Assembly (NCBI RefSeq): GCF_026222555.1
Contig: NZ_CP098511.1
Span: 849,501 to 913,500 of the forward strand
Direction: 5' to 3'
Length of the DNA: 64,000 nt
Source of the DNA: Aquimarina sp. ERC-38
GTDB lineage: Bacteria > Bacteroidota > Bacteroidia > Flavobacteriales > Flavobacteriaceae
Shown: positions 28,374 through 50,784 of the stretch, one piece after another
How positions within the stretch are numbered: position 1 is the stretch's first letter
How the letters are laid out: each line of letters opens with the position of its first letter
Program-made: the position numbers and the translations under genes
Notes under the pieces: generated by a model
What the model was told of the DNA's origin: nothing
What the model saw: only the letters and a program-made list of their open reading frames with translations
Databases searched by the model: none

Positions 28374-29765
28374 TTATAAGCTGATATCGTATTGTTTTAA
28401 TTTGTTATATAAAGTCTTCCGATCAATAGAAAGCATCCGCGCCGCTTTTGCTTTATTTCCATTCGCTTTTTCCAATGCTTCCAGGATCAACTCCTGTTCA
28501 TTATGATTTTTAAAAAGTCCGTAGGTTTGATTACTTTTAGTTGAAGCATAAGCAATATCCTGAGGAAGTACAGTTAGCGAAATCAATTCATTTTGAGAAA
28601 GTAATACGGATCTCTTTACAATATTCTTTAATTCCCGAAGATTCCCGGGCCATTCGTACTTTTTAAAAGCTTCTAAAACTTCATCGGCAAAACCCACTAT
28701 ATTTTTATCCAGTTCTTCGTTAGCATTTTCCAGAAAATGATTGGCAAACAACATTAAATCTTCTGTCCGTTCCCGTAAAGGAGGTACTTTTATCGAAAAT
28801 TCATTCAGACGATGGTATAAATCTTCTCGAAACTCCCCTTCTTTTACCGCTGCCGATAAATCTTCATTAGTGGCCGCAATTACCCGAATATCCACTTCAA
28901 TCTCCTTATTACTCCCTACCGGCTTAATCTTTCGTTCTTGCAATGCCCGTAGCAACTGTACTTGAAGTTCATAACTTAAATTACCAATTTCATCCAGAAA
29001 CAAAGTTCCGCCATTTGCGGCTTCAAAGTGTCCTACTTTATCATTAACCGCACCCGTAAAAGAACCTTTTACATGACCAAAAAATTCGCTGGAAGCAATC
29101 TCTTTAGGAATTGCGCCACAATCTACGGGTACAAAAGGTTGATTTTCTCTTTTACTCCGTTTATGGATATTACTGGCTACATATTCTTTTCCTGTTCCGC
29201 TATCTCCAATAATTAAAACAGACATTTTGGTAGGAGCCACCAGGTCAATATATTCATTTAGTTTTTTTGAAGCATCACTAATCCCTTTTACAAAAGAAGA
29301 AGAAACAGTCGTTGTGACTGTAGTAGATTTCTTTTTAGAAGAAGATAGAGTTCCTTTTTTATTGGGAATAGATGGTTCTGTCGTAGCAGAGGTCGTATTT
29401 ATAAGTGGAACCGCCAGCGCTTTTTGTATCGTATCAAGAATTGTATCCGGGTTAAAAGGTTTTGCTATATAATCAAAAGCACCTTGCTTGATAGCATTAA
29501 CCGCCATGTTAATCTCGGCATATCCGGTCATGACAATCACCTGAGTATTTTTATCCTTTTTATGAATATCCTCTAATAAAGCAATTCCATCTTTATCCGG
29601 CAAACGCACATCGGTTAATACCACGTCAAAATGATGTTCCCTTAATAAGTTCACAGCTTCCTGTCCTGAAAATGCAGTTTGCACTTCATACTCTTTTTTT
29701 TCTAAAAAGGTTTTAAGCATTTTGCAAAATGCAACATCATCTTCAACGATCAATAAATTAGGCAT
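28374..29765 (-). CDS. Sigma-54-dependent NtrC-family response regulator
   Basis: A 463-residue activator. The receiver (1-120) has IVEDDVAFC, VVLTDVRLPDKDG and IAKPFNP. A linker rich in Ser/Thr (GTLSSSKKKSTTVTTTVSS) leads to the AAA+ domain (about 160-390): Walker A GDSGTGKEYVASN, the sigma-54 contact loop GSFTGA in place of the usual GAFTGA, and GGTLFLDEIGNL. A Fis-type helix-turn-helix ends the protein (NKAKAARMLSIDRKTLYNKL). It controls promoters recognised by RpoN. It is probably the partner of the convergent hybrid kinase. Targets are not visible. Confidence 0.94.
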   Translation of the reverse strand: MPNLLIVEDDVAFCKMLKTFLEKKEYEVQTAFSGQEAVNLLREHHFDVVLTDVRLPDKDGIALLEDIHKKDKNTQVIVMTGYAEINMAVNAIKQGAFDYIAKPFNPDTILDTIQKALAVPLINTTSATTEPSIPNKKGTLSSSKKKSTTVTTTVSSSFVKGISDASKKLNEYIDLVAPTKMSVLIIGDSGTGKEYVASNIHKRSKRENQPFVPVDCGAIPKEIASSEFFGHVKGSFTGAVNDKVGHFEAANGGTLFLDEIGNLSYELQVQLLRALQERKIKPVGSNKEIEVDIRVIAATNEDLSAAVKEGEFREDLYHRLNEFSIKVPPLRERTEDLMLFANHFLENANEELDKNIVGFADEVLEAFKKYEWPGNLRELKNIVKRSVLLSQNELISLTVLPQDIAYASTKSNQTYGLFKNHNEQELILEALEKANGNKAKAARMLSIDRKTLYNKLKQYDISL

Positions 29766-29934: not shown

Positions 29935-30100
29935 TGGTAAAGATTCAAGATCGCTAATGCTTCTAGAATCAAGAATCAAGACTAATCTTTATATTATTGA
30001 AAATCACCAACTATATTTGAACAAACTACTGTTGAAAAAGTAAAAAAGCAACCTTCAAATATCTTAAAATTTAGAATTACTTTATTTTACTAGGCTTTGT
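29935..30100. repeat. Dispersed intergenic repeat, copy 1 (second copy 48622-48800)
   Basis: Shares GGTAAAGATTCAAGATCGCT, CAAGAATCAAGACTAAT, TATTGAAAAT, AGTAAAAAAG-AACCT and a closing CTATGCTTT/CTAGGCTTT with 48622-48800, in the same order over about 165 bases. It has no coding potential. The surrounding gap 29766-30293 otherwise holds only the terminator below. Confidence 0.75.
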
Positions 30101-30293: not shown

Positions 30294-30659
30294 TTACGAT
30301 TTATCTTCTGATGAAATCCATTCACCGTCAGCGTTTATAAATAAAATTTTGGATTGGTTATTTTCGTTAATTAGGATGAGTTTGTAACTATTATCTTTGG
30401 CTATGTAAGCTTTTACGATCCGACTTGCCCCGTAGTCATTTACTACTGCGTTTTGTACCGCCATTGGCAAATCAACAATCTTTACTTCAACATATTCCTG
30501 AAACTCGTTTTGATAATCAAACTCATTATCGGTATTAGCATAAGCTAAATCTTCTTGTGCTATGACTCCCTGAGCCGATATAACACTTACTATTATTGCA
30601 ATTATCATAGGTAACTTTATCATGGTTTTAAAAGTAGTATCTATCATACTGTTTAACAT
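30294..30659 (-). CDS. Small exported protein with a PepSY-like fold
   Basis: A 121-residue protein. Translation may start at 30659 or at the second in-frame Met pair (MIKLPMIIAIIVSVISAQ, start 30623), which gives a cleaner signal peptide ending near VIAQ. The mature part DLPMAVQNAVVNDYGASRIV, AYIAKDNSYKLIL and FINADGEWISSED resembles one PepSY-like (putative beta-lactamase-inhibitor-like) repeat: a helix followed by strands with a final DG-W turn. This family in Bacteroidota is periplasmic and of unknown role. It stands alone; a hairpin terminator follows. Confidence 0.65.
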   Translation of the reverse strand: MLNSMIDTTFKTMIKLPMIIAIIVSVISAQGVIAQEDLAYANTDNEFDYQNEFQEYVEVKIVDLPMAVQNAVVNDYGASRIVKAYIAKDNSYKLILINENNQSKILFINADGEWISSEDKS

Positions 30660-47207: not shown

Positions 47208-48020
47208 TTAAAAAGTCAGGGCGCCTTCAAATAGGATACAGGCATTACTTCTCACTTCAAGTTGGTGATCATTCATAATTTTAAGGTCAAGATATCCCCC
47301 TCTCTCAGATAATTGATAGGCCTTCATTTCTTTTTTATTCAATTTCTTAGCCCAGGATAAAGCTAAAACCGAATGCGCCGAGCCGGTTACCGGGTCTTCA
47401 TCAATACCAATCCAGGGACCAAAACACCTCGAATAAAAATCGTATTTTTTATCATCTGACTTACAAGTTACTATTAAACCTGATATAGTTGTTGAAAGCT
47501 TTCCGGCTTTTTGAAAATTGGGTTTTAGGTTTGCTAAGGTTTCTTTATCCGAAACCTCAACTATTACCATATTCAGATCTTCTGAGAATTTTGCTTCACA
47601 TATATTCTTAACGGTGAAAGCTTCTAACAATTTTTGATCCGGAGTATGATCTATCGTATGATATAATGGAAAGTATAAAGTAATATTTTCTTCTCCTTTA
47701 AAAGCTTTTAAAACTAAATTATAATTAGTTGTAAACTGAACTTCAAACAAACTTGTTTTTTCAAAGATAACTTTAGCCGCTGCTAAAGTCGCATGTCCGC
47801 AAAATTCAATTTCAACCGTAGGTGTAAAATATTGAATAGAATAATTCCCTTTTTCATTTGGAAAAGGACGTATAAATGCAGTTTCGGACAAATTTAATTC
47901 GGCGGCAATGTTTTGCATTGTAGTTTGATCTAAATCTTTTTCTAACAAACAAATCCCAGCAGGATTTCCGCTAAAAAGTTGATTCGTAAAAGAATCTACG
48001 ATAAAAGTTTGTATTTTCAT
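47208..48020 (-). CDS. PhzF-family isomerase/epimerase-like protein
   Basis: A 270-residue protein of the PhzF/diaminopimelate-epimerase fold. Motifs: FSGNPAGICLLEKDLD (about 16-31), NLSETAFIRPFPNEKGNYSI, EIEFCGHATLAAAKVIF (about 71-87) and EDPVTGSAHSVLALSWAKKL. Catalytic Glu near residue 46 is present in LNLSETAF. The true substrate of most PhzF relatives is unknown, and no phenazine genes are nearby. Divergent from yefM, with which it shares an 80-base upstream region that holds the palindromic operator candidate. Confidence 0.88.
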   Translation of the reverse strand: MKIQTFIVDSFTNQLFSGNPAGICLLEKDLDQTTMQNIAAELNLSETAFIRPFPNEKGNYSIQYFTPTVEIEFCGHATLAAAKVIFEKTSLFEVQFTTNYNLVLKAFKGEENITLYFPLYHTIDHTPDQKLLEAFTVKNICEAKFSEDLNMVIVEVSDKETLANLKPNFQKAGKLSTTISGLIVTCKSDDKKYDFYSRCFGPWIGIDEDPVTGSAHSVLALSWAKKLNKKEMKAYQLSERGGYLDLKIMNDHQLEVRSNACILFEGALTF

Positions 48021-48053
48021 ACGTTGAAATTAAAATATTATTTCTTTTTTTGA

Positions 48054-48073
48054 TACAAATTATTGTACGTACA
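48054..48073 (+). promoter_or_regulatory. Candidate YefM operator
   Basis: Two overlapping palindromes: TACAAATTATTGTA (48054-48067, arms TACAA/TTGTA) and TGTACGTACA (48064-48073). The E. coli yefM operator contains palindromes built around TGTACA, so autoregulation by the antitoxin is likely. The site lies 28 bases before the antitoxin ATG and 34 bases before phzF-like gene start, so it may affect both. Confidence 0.5.
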
Positions 48074-48100
48074 TTCATTCGTATTTTCAATTCATCTATT

Positions 48101-48352
48101 ATGCTAATTACAAATATTTCAGATTTTAGAAAAAATATGAACTCTTATTTTGATCAGGTAATTTCCGATTTTGAAACGCTACTTATTAACCGGGGTAAAG
48201 ATAAAGGTATTGTTATAATGTCGTTATCAGAATATAATTCTTTGATGGCTACCCACCATGAACTAAGTTCCCGAAAAAATCAACAAAGGTTAGATGCAGC
48301 AATTGAAAAAGTAGAAAAAGATATTACTTTCTCAAAAGATTTATTAGAGTAA
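48101..48352 (+). CDS. yefM: Phd/YefM-family antitoxin (orphaned)
   Basis: An 83-residue antitoxin from the ATG at 48101; an upstream in-frame TTG would overlap the operator. The N-terminal DNA-binding and dimer domain MLITNISDFRKNMNSYFDQV, TLLINRGKDKGIVIMSLSEY and NSLMATHHELSS is typical. The C-terminal helix (NQQRLDAAIEKVEKDITFSK) would wrap the toxin. The toxin ATG originally lay 4 bases after the stop (48357), the usual operon spacing, but the toxin gene is broken by insertions. The antitoxin frame itself is intact. Confidence 0.9.
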   Translation: MLITNISDFRKNMNSYFDQVISDFETLLINRGKDKGIVIMSLSEYNSLMATHHELSSRKNQQRLDAAIEKVEKDITFSKDLLE

Positions 48353-48368
48353 ACAAATGAAATATATA

Positions 48369-48549
48369 CCTCAGGTGCATTTAGGTGGAAAAAGCGTCAA
48401 TTCGAGTGTTTTTTCGTAATGAAATGAAGAAAAAATGTATCGAGAATAGCTTTTTTCATTAAAATCCTTGTTCTCGATACACTTCTTCCTCTGGTCGAAG
48501 CACTCGAACTGACGGATTTTATAATAATTATAATTTAAATACACCACAG
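48369..48549. mobile_element. 181-bp MITE-like element with 12-bp target-site duplication
   Basis: The bases ATGAAATATATA occur at 48357-48368 and again at 48550-48561, flanking 181 bases exactly. Element ends are inverted repeats: CTCAGGTGCATTTA at the left against CTGTGGTGTATTTA (complement of the right end). Nested inverted blocks follow: CGTCAATTCGAGTG (48395-48408) with CACTCGAACTGACG (48501-48514), and TGTATCGAGAA (48436-48446) with TTCTCGATACA (48471-48481). It codes for no transposase, so it would be moved by one elsewhere. It sits in the start codon region of yoeB. Confidence 0.82.
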
Positions 48550-48621
48550 ATGAAATATATATTTGTAGATGAATCTTGGGAATATTATCTCTATTGGCAG
48601 AAAAATGATAAAAAAACATTA

Positions 48622-48800
48622 GTATTCGGTAAAGATTCAAGATCGCTATCGCTTCTAGAAACAAGAATCAAGACTAATTATTACAGTATTGAAAATTAAT
48701 ATTTACGTTAAAGAGTACATTACTTTTAAAATAGTAAAAAAGTAACCTCTAACCATTTTAAAGTTTGAATTTACCCTATTTCACTATGCTTTACTACTGG
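48622..48800. repeat. Dispersed intergenic repeat, copy 2 (first copy 29935-30100)
   Basis: Begins at the point where the YoeB N-part ends (about 48622) and shares with copy 1 GGTAAAGATTCAAGATCGCT, CAAGAATCAAGACTAAT, TATTGAAAAT, AGTAAAAAAGTAACCT and CTATGCTTTA. It forms the first half of the block that replaces the middle of yoeB. Confidence 0.75.
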
Positions 48801-48814
48801 TGAATTCAGGGAAA

Positions 48815-48938
48815 AAAGTTTAAATTTAAGTGTTTTTTCGTAAGGAAATGAAGAAAAGATAGCCTGTCCTTGACTTGATCGAGAATATCGAGTCCTTCGA
48901 TTTGACTTAGGATGACATAGCTTTTTTGATTAATATCC
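48815..48938. repeat. Repeat related to the MITE-like element inside yoeB
   Basis: AGTGTTTTTTCGTAA-GAAATGAAGAAAA and ATAGCTTTTTT-ATTAA-ATCCTT occur in the same order as in the element at 48369-48549. The centre differs: it holds CTTGATCGAGAATATCGAGTC. It ends where the YoeB C-part resumes (about 48939). It may be a diverged or rearranged relative of the first element. Confidence 0.6.
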
Positions 48939-49185
48939 TTAAAACATAATTATACAGGATACCGGTCAAGAAGAATTGATAGTGAACATCGACTGATTTA
49001 TAAATTTTTAAACGATCAATTCTTTATGATTAAATGTAGGTTCCATTATGACTAAATCTTTCAAACCCTGCTAAAATTCAAGCTTTTCTATATTTTAAAA
49101 TACACTGAACACCACATCCTTTTCAATTAATTCCCTTCTTAAAAAAAATCCGGATAAGAGGTCTTCTTTTTTCAATTTAATCAAC

Positions 49186-49269: not shown

Positions 49270-50784
<1,515 letters not shown>

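What the first reader, a model, noticed from the sequence alone, without database searches (positions are those of the whole stretch)
48050..49055. yefM-yoeB toxin-antitoxin locus with the toxin destroyed by stacked insertions
Seen directly: an intact YefM-type antitoxin is followed by YoeB cut into three parts: the original ATG region (48357-48368), the N-terminal 24 residues (48550-48621) and the C-terminal 38 residues (48939-49055). Both halves match YoeB family patterns (ESW..YLYWQ; SRRI..EHRL.Y; C.RF.HY). The intervening blocks are repeats also found elsewhere in the window. An orphan antitoxin with a fossil toxin gives a rare view of how a TA system decays, and the antitoxin may persist to neutralise other YoeB copies or as a regulator.
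Basis: partly seen in the sequence, partly recalled or inferred. Interest (0 to 1): 0.75.

Follow-up and report, generated by a model that had tools for sequence, protein, structure and literature searches.

The report
Broken yoeB toxin beside orphan antitoxin
A marine bacterium's toxin-antitoxin gene pair has lost its toxin to small transposon-like insertions and a deletion while the antitoxin gene is still open; this is a clear but ordinary example of how such pairs decay.

Summary
An open YefM antitoxin gene (48101-48352) is followed by a dead yoeB. The toxin is in two pieces, not three: codons 1-22 (48550-48616) and residues 48-85 (about 48941-49055). The interrupting DNA belongs to two families of short terminal-inverted-repeat (MITE-like) elements, each with dozens of copies in this 4.43-Mb genome. 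Element A sits in the toxin start codon between 9-bp repeats. Element B interrupts codon 23, and a second A copy (A') sits in B. The right half of A', B's right end and toxin codons ~23-47 (with catalytic Glu46) are missing, as one deletion would explain. In 51 other genomes of the genus, 15 have an antitoxin match (16 matches), and all 16 are followed within 60 bp by a YoeB match. The only other yefM-yoeB that profiles find in this genome also looks damaged: antitoxin split by an IS4/5-type element, toxin with Cys at the Tyr84 position. The orphan antitoxin shows mild signs of drift, so retention for a function is not supported, though not excluded. Toxin decay and orphan antitoxins are described in the literature; this is a well-resolved new case, not a new kind of system.

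The parts
48064..48073 (.). TGTACGTACA, the one good YefM-operator-like half-site upstream of the antitoxin; the partner expected 12 bp downstream (48076-48081) reads CATTCG
   Evidence: operator geometry (two palindromes with TGTACA core, 12 bp centre to centre) from passages of PMC7730913
48101..48352 (+). orphan YefM/Phd-family antitoxin, 83 aa, open
   Evidence: PF02604 E 4.2e-17; solved antitoxins, best E 3.6e-8, E. coli YefM 1.2e-7
48359..48367 (.). left copy of the 9-bp flank repeat (target-site duplication) of element A
48368..48551 (.). element A: 184-bp MITE-like repeat with terminal inverted repeat ACCTCTGGTGCATTTA
   Evidence: 72 matches, 40 of 96 candidates scored; 34 distinct copies with both ends located
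48552..48560 (.). right copy of the 9-bp flank repeat; its first base completes an ATG with element A's last two bases
48550..48616 (+). yoeB N-terminal piece, codons 1-22 plus one base; the first two bases belong to element A
   Evidence: the open frame runs on into element B to 48699
48617..48792 (.). element B: MITE-like repeat with terminal inverted repeat CATTAGTGTCCGGTWAA, right end missing
48793..48940 (.). element A': second copy of family A, inside B, right half missing
48941..49055 (+). yoeB C-terminal piece (residues 48-85 and stop); no ATG, GTG or TTG in frame between the upstream stop and the piece

Best explanation
This is a decayed chromosomal yefM-yoeB type II toxin-antitoxin module. 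A full pair was once adjacent (indicated by the two toxin pieces and by the full-length neighbours in relatives). Element B inserted in codon 23 of the toxin, a family-A element (A') inserted near the right end of B, and a deletion removed the rest of A', the right end of B and the middle of the toxin, so no active toxin can be made (the end state is shown; the steps and their order are inferred). A further, less diverged A element landed in the toxin's start codon, probably after the gene was already dead (inferred from divergence). The antitoxin remains as an open frame because, with no toxin, its loss is neutral and has not happened yet; it has begun to drift (inferred).
For: Pieces match YoeB separately (the C piece also in 12 and 14). 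Family A: 34 distinct copies with both ends placed (up to 7 of 16 mismatches allowed per end); 8-bp flank repeats with at most 1 mismatch in 8 of 34 against 0.8% of up to 400 control pairings. Family B: 9-bp repeats with at most 1 mismatch in 10 of 19 against 1.1%. The window's element A has a perfect 9-bp repeat. B's ends: 101 forward and 107 reverse matches at up to 3 mismatches, control 11 and 10. All 16 antitoxin matches in 15 of 51 other genus genomes have a YoeB match 14-59 bp after them on the same strand. Divergence from family consensus: A 3.9% (6 copies), B 9.7% (21), A' 10.6%, the most diverged of 10. The C piece departs at 7 of 27 positions conserved at 95% or more; none of 120 listed homologues at more than 2. 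One is Trp56, Trp in 120 of 120.
Against: 26 of 34 family-A copies and 9 of 19 family-B copies show no such flank repeat, and A's ends stand out less over the control (32 and 34 against 15 and 2). The insertion order rests on single copies against small consensus sets that include them, and elements may have diverged before they moved. B's own flank repeat cannot be checked because its right flank is gone. No close strain with the uninterrupted locus was found; the ancestral state is inferred from relatives with 51-57% identical antitoxins. The C piece was scored against homologues of a relative's toxin, which favours departures; the N piece is not unusual (1 of 17, reached by 13 of 120).
Confidence: 0.88

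Rival explanations
1. The antitoxin is retained by selection as an anti-addiction factor or as a regulator, neutralising YoeB toxins from plasmids or from the second locus.
For: The frame is open over 83 codons, and 86-88% identical proteins exist in two metagenome clusters. At sites conserved at 98% or more it departs at only 1 of 40, reached by 20 of 119 homologues. Anti-addiction is a published proposal for chromosomal TA systems and orphan antitoxins (passages of PMC10790755 and PMC2654758). One TGTAC half-site remains upstream.
Against: Where it differs from its two closest relatives it has the rare residue at positions 12, 14 and 23 and they the common one. At sites conserved at 95% or more it departs at 3 of 47, reached by 2 of 119 homologues. 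The partner operator half-site is degenerate: best 12-bp-spaced pair 9 of 12, against 11-12 in its four closest relatives and in two more distant ones. The second YoeB belongs with an antitoxin 33% identical; a passage of PMC7730913 says of such homologous pairs that they interact productively only with cognate partners.
Confidence: 0.12
2. The N-terminal 49-residue chimeric frame (toxin residues 1-22 plus a tail read from element B) is a new small protein or a partner of the antitoxin.
For: It has an ATG and is open to 48699.
Against: Glu46, Arg59, Arg65, His83 and Tyr84 of YoeB all lie outside it; its tail is repeat DNA. Pfam finds only the YoeB N-terminus in it and NCBIfam nothing. No wider homologue search was made for it.
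Confidence: 0.02

Closest known systems
yefM-yoeB type II toxin-antitoxin modules (E. coli; also axe-txe)
   Same: Antitoxin family and length, gene order, a TGTAC operator half-site, toxin pieces that match YoeB at both ends
   Different: Toxin interrupted and partly deleted; antitoxin stop and toxin start do not overlap as they do in the intact relative in L220; partner operator half-site degenerate
Decaying chromosomal TA systems (ccdO157 and hok-sok copies of E. coli)
   Same: TA genes decaying on a chromosome; [quoted passage not shown]
   Different: Here a type II mRNA-interferase toxin is broken by MITE-like elements and an internal deletion. The ccdO157 paper itself is not held and is known only through reviews
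Orphan antitoxins surveyed in 950 E. coli genomes (PMC10790755, passages)
   Same: Open antitoxin without a working partner
   Different: Here the fossil of the partner is still in place, so the cause can be read
MITEs (miniature inverted-repeat transposable elements)
   Same: Short, terminal inverted repeats, short flank repeats, many copies
   Different: No gene-bearing parent element was found, so the transposase family is unknown

Membership tests
YefM/Phd antitoxin | Matches the curated family profile over its length | tested here: met
   PF02604 62.1 bits against cut-off 29.8, positions 1-72 of 74; the stricter NCBIfam YefM equivalog cut-off is not reached (45.5 of 121 bits)
YefM/Phd antitoxin | Paired TGTACA operator, 12 bp centre to centre (described for E. 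coli yefM-yoeB and axe-txe) | tested here: inconclusive
   Window pair 9 of 12 at best, the level of the relatives' second-best positions; L007-L010, L011 and L025, chosen because one search showed TGTAC there, score 11-12. But ten other loci (L012-L021) have AGTACTT-type repeats instead, so the motif is not universal
YefM/Phd antitoxin | Neutralises YoeB and represses its own promoter | not testable with these tools
   Needs bench work
YoeB toxin (as a working toxin) | Full-length frame with Glu46, Arg65, His83, Tyr84 in one protein | tested here: not met
   Residues ~23-47 absent; the C piece has no usual start codon
YoeB toxin (as a pseudogene) | Both remnants match the family at the expected ends | tested here: met
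   Profile positions 1-20 (weak alone) and 44-80; genus toxins at both ends
MITE (family A) | Short element with inverted termini, flank repeats, many copies | tested here: met
   184 bp in the window; 34 distinct copies with both ends; 8-bp flank repeats in 8 of 34
MITE (family B) | Short element with inverted termini, flank repeats, many copies | tested here: met
   202-242 bp; 19 of 21 loci with both ends; 9-bp flank repeats in 10 of 19. The window's own copy is truncated
MITE (both families) | Derived from a gene-bearing insertion sequence with the same ends | tested here: inconclusive
   Among the places that one search lists (not all 208 matches) I saw no converging pair of B ends 0.8-3 kb apart; A was not examined for this

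The most novel reading that the evidence does not exclude
In this genome both yefM-yoeB modules, of two different subfamilies, have lost toxin activity by unrelated routes (insertion plus deletion here; a changed catalytic residue at the other locus, whose antitoxin is also split by an IS4/5-type element). The two loci would be natural snapshots of an obligatory order of decay: the toxin goes first, and only then can the antitoxin, its operator and its DNA-binding part erode.
Probability: 0.4. Interest if true: 0.4.

Novelty: new member of a known kind. Interest (0 to 1): 0.27.

Why it matters
It shows, base by base, how a toxin-antitoxin pair dies: the toxin is destroyed by small mobile elements and a deletion while the antitoxin stays readable and may be starting to drift. 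With the second damaged locus in the same genome it offers a natural test of a toxin-first order of decay. It also warns that an 'orphan antitoxin' in annotation can simply be a leftover.

Tried and rejected
Rejected: 'three toxin parts' (the first carries a flank repeat of element A). Rejected: element A as the event that killed the toxin; its insertion leaves an ATG in frame and it is the least diverged of the three inserts, so it is probably late. Considered and not supported: trans-neutralisation of the second YoeB. Rfam search of the window: no match at gathering scores. Named relatives by the PhzF-like neighbour: none. AtpD scan: the four best of 80 kept loci are Aquimarina (94-95%), but Algibacter and Winogradskyella reach 94% too; AtpC is 69.6-73.6% identical in the six Aquimarina loci and at most 69.6% in the other 74. 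So Aquimarina is likely, not proven. In none of the 80 loci did tblastn at E 1e-5 find the antitoxin, the PhzF-like gene or the 38-residue C piece near atpD; the upstream flank is at most 3 kb and shorter in some, and so short a piece could be missed. The site itself could therefore not be compared empty against filled.

Literature: 'MITE + Flavobacteriaceae + miniature inverted' 0 papers; 'YefM + Aquimarina' 0; 'miniature inverted-repeat transposable + Bacteroidetes + Flavobacter' 5, listing only. Of I saw listings, and passages of PMC3814384, PMC10790755, PMC7167474, PMC7730913 and PMC2654758; no paper was read whole. I saw no description of the two repeat families, which is weak evidence of absence.

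Limits: one search used the best 119 homologues of the window's antitoxin (of 590) but the best 120 of a relative's toxin (of 8000 scored), so the two tests are not comparable. The operator comparison used six loci chosen for having TGTAC.

Full report
What is there. The stretch 48050-49055 lies between a PhzF-like gene (47208-48020, minus strand; Pfam PhzC-PhzF E 1.2e-57) and a gene at 49276 that encodes the ATP synthase beta subunit (atpD; named from the sequence, matched to flavobacterial genomes). An 83-codon frame, 48101-48352, is a YefM/Phd antitoxin (PF02604, E 4.2e-17; solved antitoxins, best E 3.6e-8). Two remnants of yoeB follow. The N-terminal one matches the YoeB profile weakly on its own (positions 1-20, E 0.0048), the C-terminal one strongly (positions 44-80, E 3e-12; YoeB structures E 1.1e-8 and weaker). 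Compared with full-length toxins of the same genus the N piece is 83% identical over 24 residues and the C piece up to 66% over 38, aligned to toxin residues 1-24 and 48-85. About 25 residues between them are absent. They include Glu46, the general base of E. coli YoeB; Arg65, His83 and Tyr84 lie in the C piece (roles from passages of PMC3814384), which has no ATG, GTG or TTG between the upstream stop and itself.

What broke it. Two repeat families account for the inserted DNA. Family A begins ACCTCTGGTGCATTTA and ends with its inverted copy; one search scored 40 of 96 candidates and gave 72 matches. Of 39 loci tried (some reaching the same element twice), 34 distinct copies had both ends placed, with up to 7 of 16 mismatches allowed. 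Eight of these 34 have 8-bp flank repeats with at most one mismatch, against 0.8% of control pairings; 26 do not. Family B begins CATTAGTGTCCGGT. Of 21 loci tried 19 had both ends (the window's own copy lacks its right end), and 10 of 19 have 9-bp flank repeats with at most one mismatch, against 1.1% of control pairings. B's ends occur 101 and 107 times on the two strands at up to three mismatches, against 11 and 10 for the backward-read control. For A's ends the excess is smaller: 32 and 34 against 15 and 2. At these lengths neither has room for a transposase gene, so I call them MITE-like. No gene-bearing parent was found, but one search listed only part of its places.

Anatomy of the inserts. 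Element A (48368-48551) lies in the toxin's start codon between perfect 9-bp repeats (48359-48367 and 48552-48560). Its last two bases and the first base of the right repeat form an ATG in frame with the toxin. Element B begins at 48617, in toxin codon 23, and runs to 48792, where a second family-A copy, A', begins. A' stops in its middle at 48940 and the toxin resumes near codon 48. B's right end, the right half of A' and the toxin's middle are all missing, which one deletion explains (inference). Divergence from the family consensus is 3.9% for A (6 copies, second lowest), 9.7% for B (fourteenth of 21) and 10.6% for A' (highest of 10). This suggests that B and A' came first and killed the toxin and A arrived later in a dead gene. 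The argument is soft because copies may differ before they move.

Relatives. In 66 genomes of the genus, 22 have a YoeB match, 25 matches in all. Three of the 25 look damaged: this locus, the second locus of this genome, and one in G049 with a TGA inside. In 91 genomes searched with the antitoxin, 19 have a match; among the 51 other genus members 15 do, with 16 matches. All 16 are followed by a YoeB match on the same strand 14-59 bp on, so this locus is the exception. The closest antitoxins are 51-53% identical in the genus and 57% in G067 of another family; metagenome proteins reach 86-88%, but their DNA could not be fetched here.

The second locus. Elsewhere in the genome (L005 4174-5569) there is another yefM-yoeB. 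Its antitoxin is split after 17 codons by an 884-bp element with inverted ends and the 3-bp flank repeat TTA, carrying an IS4/5-type transposase (PF13340 E 2.4e-22, PF01609 E 2.3e-13). The remaining 69-codon part still matches the antitoxin profile (E 1.3e-10), so neutralising activity is not excluded. Its toxin is full length (PF06769 E 3.2e-35) but ends in Cys where 120 of 120 listed homologues and the 23 other genus toxins printed have Tyr. In E. coli YoeB, Y84A abolishes activity and Y84F compromises it (PMC3814384, passage). It is probably inactive, which is inference. Five ParE-family matches elsewhere in the genome were not followed.

Is the antitoxin kept for a purpose? The evidence leans against, weakly. 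Where the window protein and its two closest relatives differ (10 positions), the window has the rare residue at 12, 14 and 23 while the relatives keep the common one; position 14 is Lys in the other homologues. At 13 and 28 neither has the common residue, and at 6 the window has the commoner one. At positions conserved at 95% or more it departs at 3 of 47, reached by 2 of 119 homologues; at 98%, at 1 of 40, reached by 20 of 119. In E. coli the operator is a pair of palindromes with a TGTACA core 12 bp apart (PMC7730913, passage). The four closest relatives (L007-L010) and two more distant ones (L011, L025) score 11-12 of 12 for such a pair. The window scores 9 at best, the level of the relatives' second-best positions, or 5 and 2 of 6 at the aligned positions. 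Ten other loci with a YoeB neighbour (L012-L021) use a different repeat, so lack of TGTACA alone does not mean decay. An 83-codon frame can stay open by chance for a while, so openness alone is not evidence of function.

Comparison with what is known. TA decay in E. coli and insertion-broken hok-sok copies are described in reviews read in passages (PMC7167474; PMC2654758), and orphan antitoxins are abundant in 950 E. coli genomes (PMC10790755, passages). This locus is a well-resolved new example. What is slightly unusual is that both yefM-yoeB modules found in one genome appear to have lost toxin activity by different routes.

Noticed in passing
L005 4174-5569 (genome C1:1534173-1535568): Second yefM-yoeB: antitoxin split by an 884-bp IS4/5-type element with a 3-bp flank repeat, toxin full length with Cys at the Tyr84 position.
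   Followed up: partly
window 29936-30098: Another copy of repeat family B, 77% identical, in the gap between frames at 28374-29765 and 30294-30659.
   Followed up: no
genome C1, many places: Two abundant MITE-like families (A and B) without a recognised gene-bearing parent; family A contains a long imperfect palindrome and varies in length (171-274 bp).
   Followed up: partly
L221 (G049:C1:146500-149500): Another genus member carries a second yoeB with an internal TGA and an altered His-Tyr end, a third damaged copy.
   Followed up: no
window 47208-48020: The PhzF-like gene beside atpD is at most 48% identical to its listed matches in 66 genus genomes, its own copy apart, so it may be an accessory acquisition.
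   Followed up: no
genome C1:3303747, 557688, 4196041, 2766144, 1147265: Five ParE-family toxin matches, one with an internal TAG.
   Followed up: no
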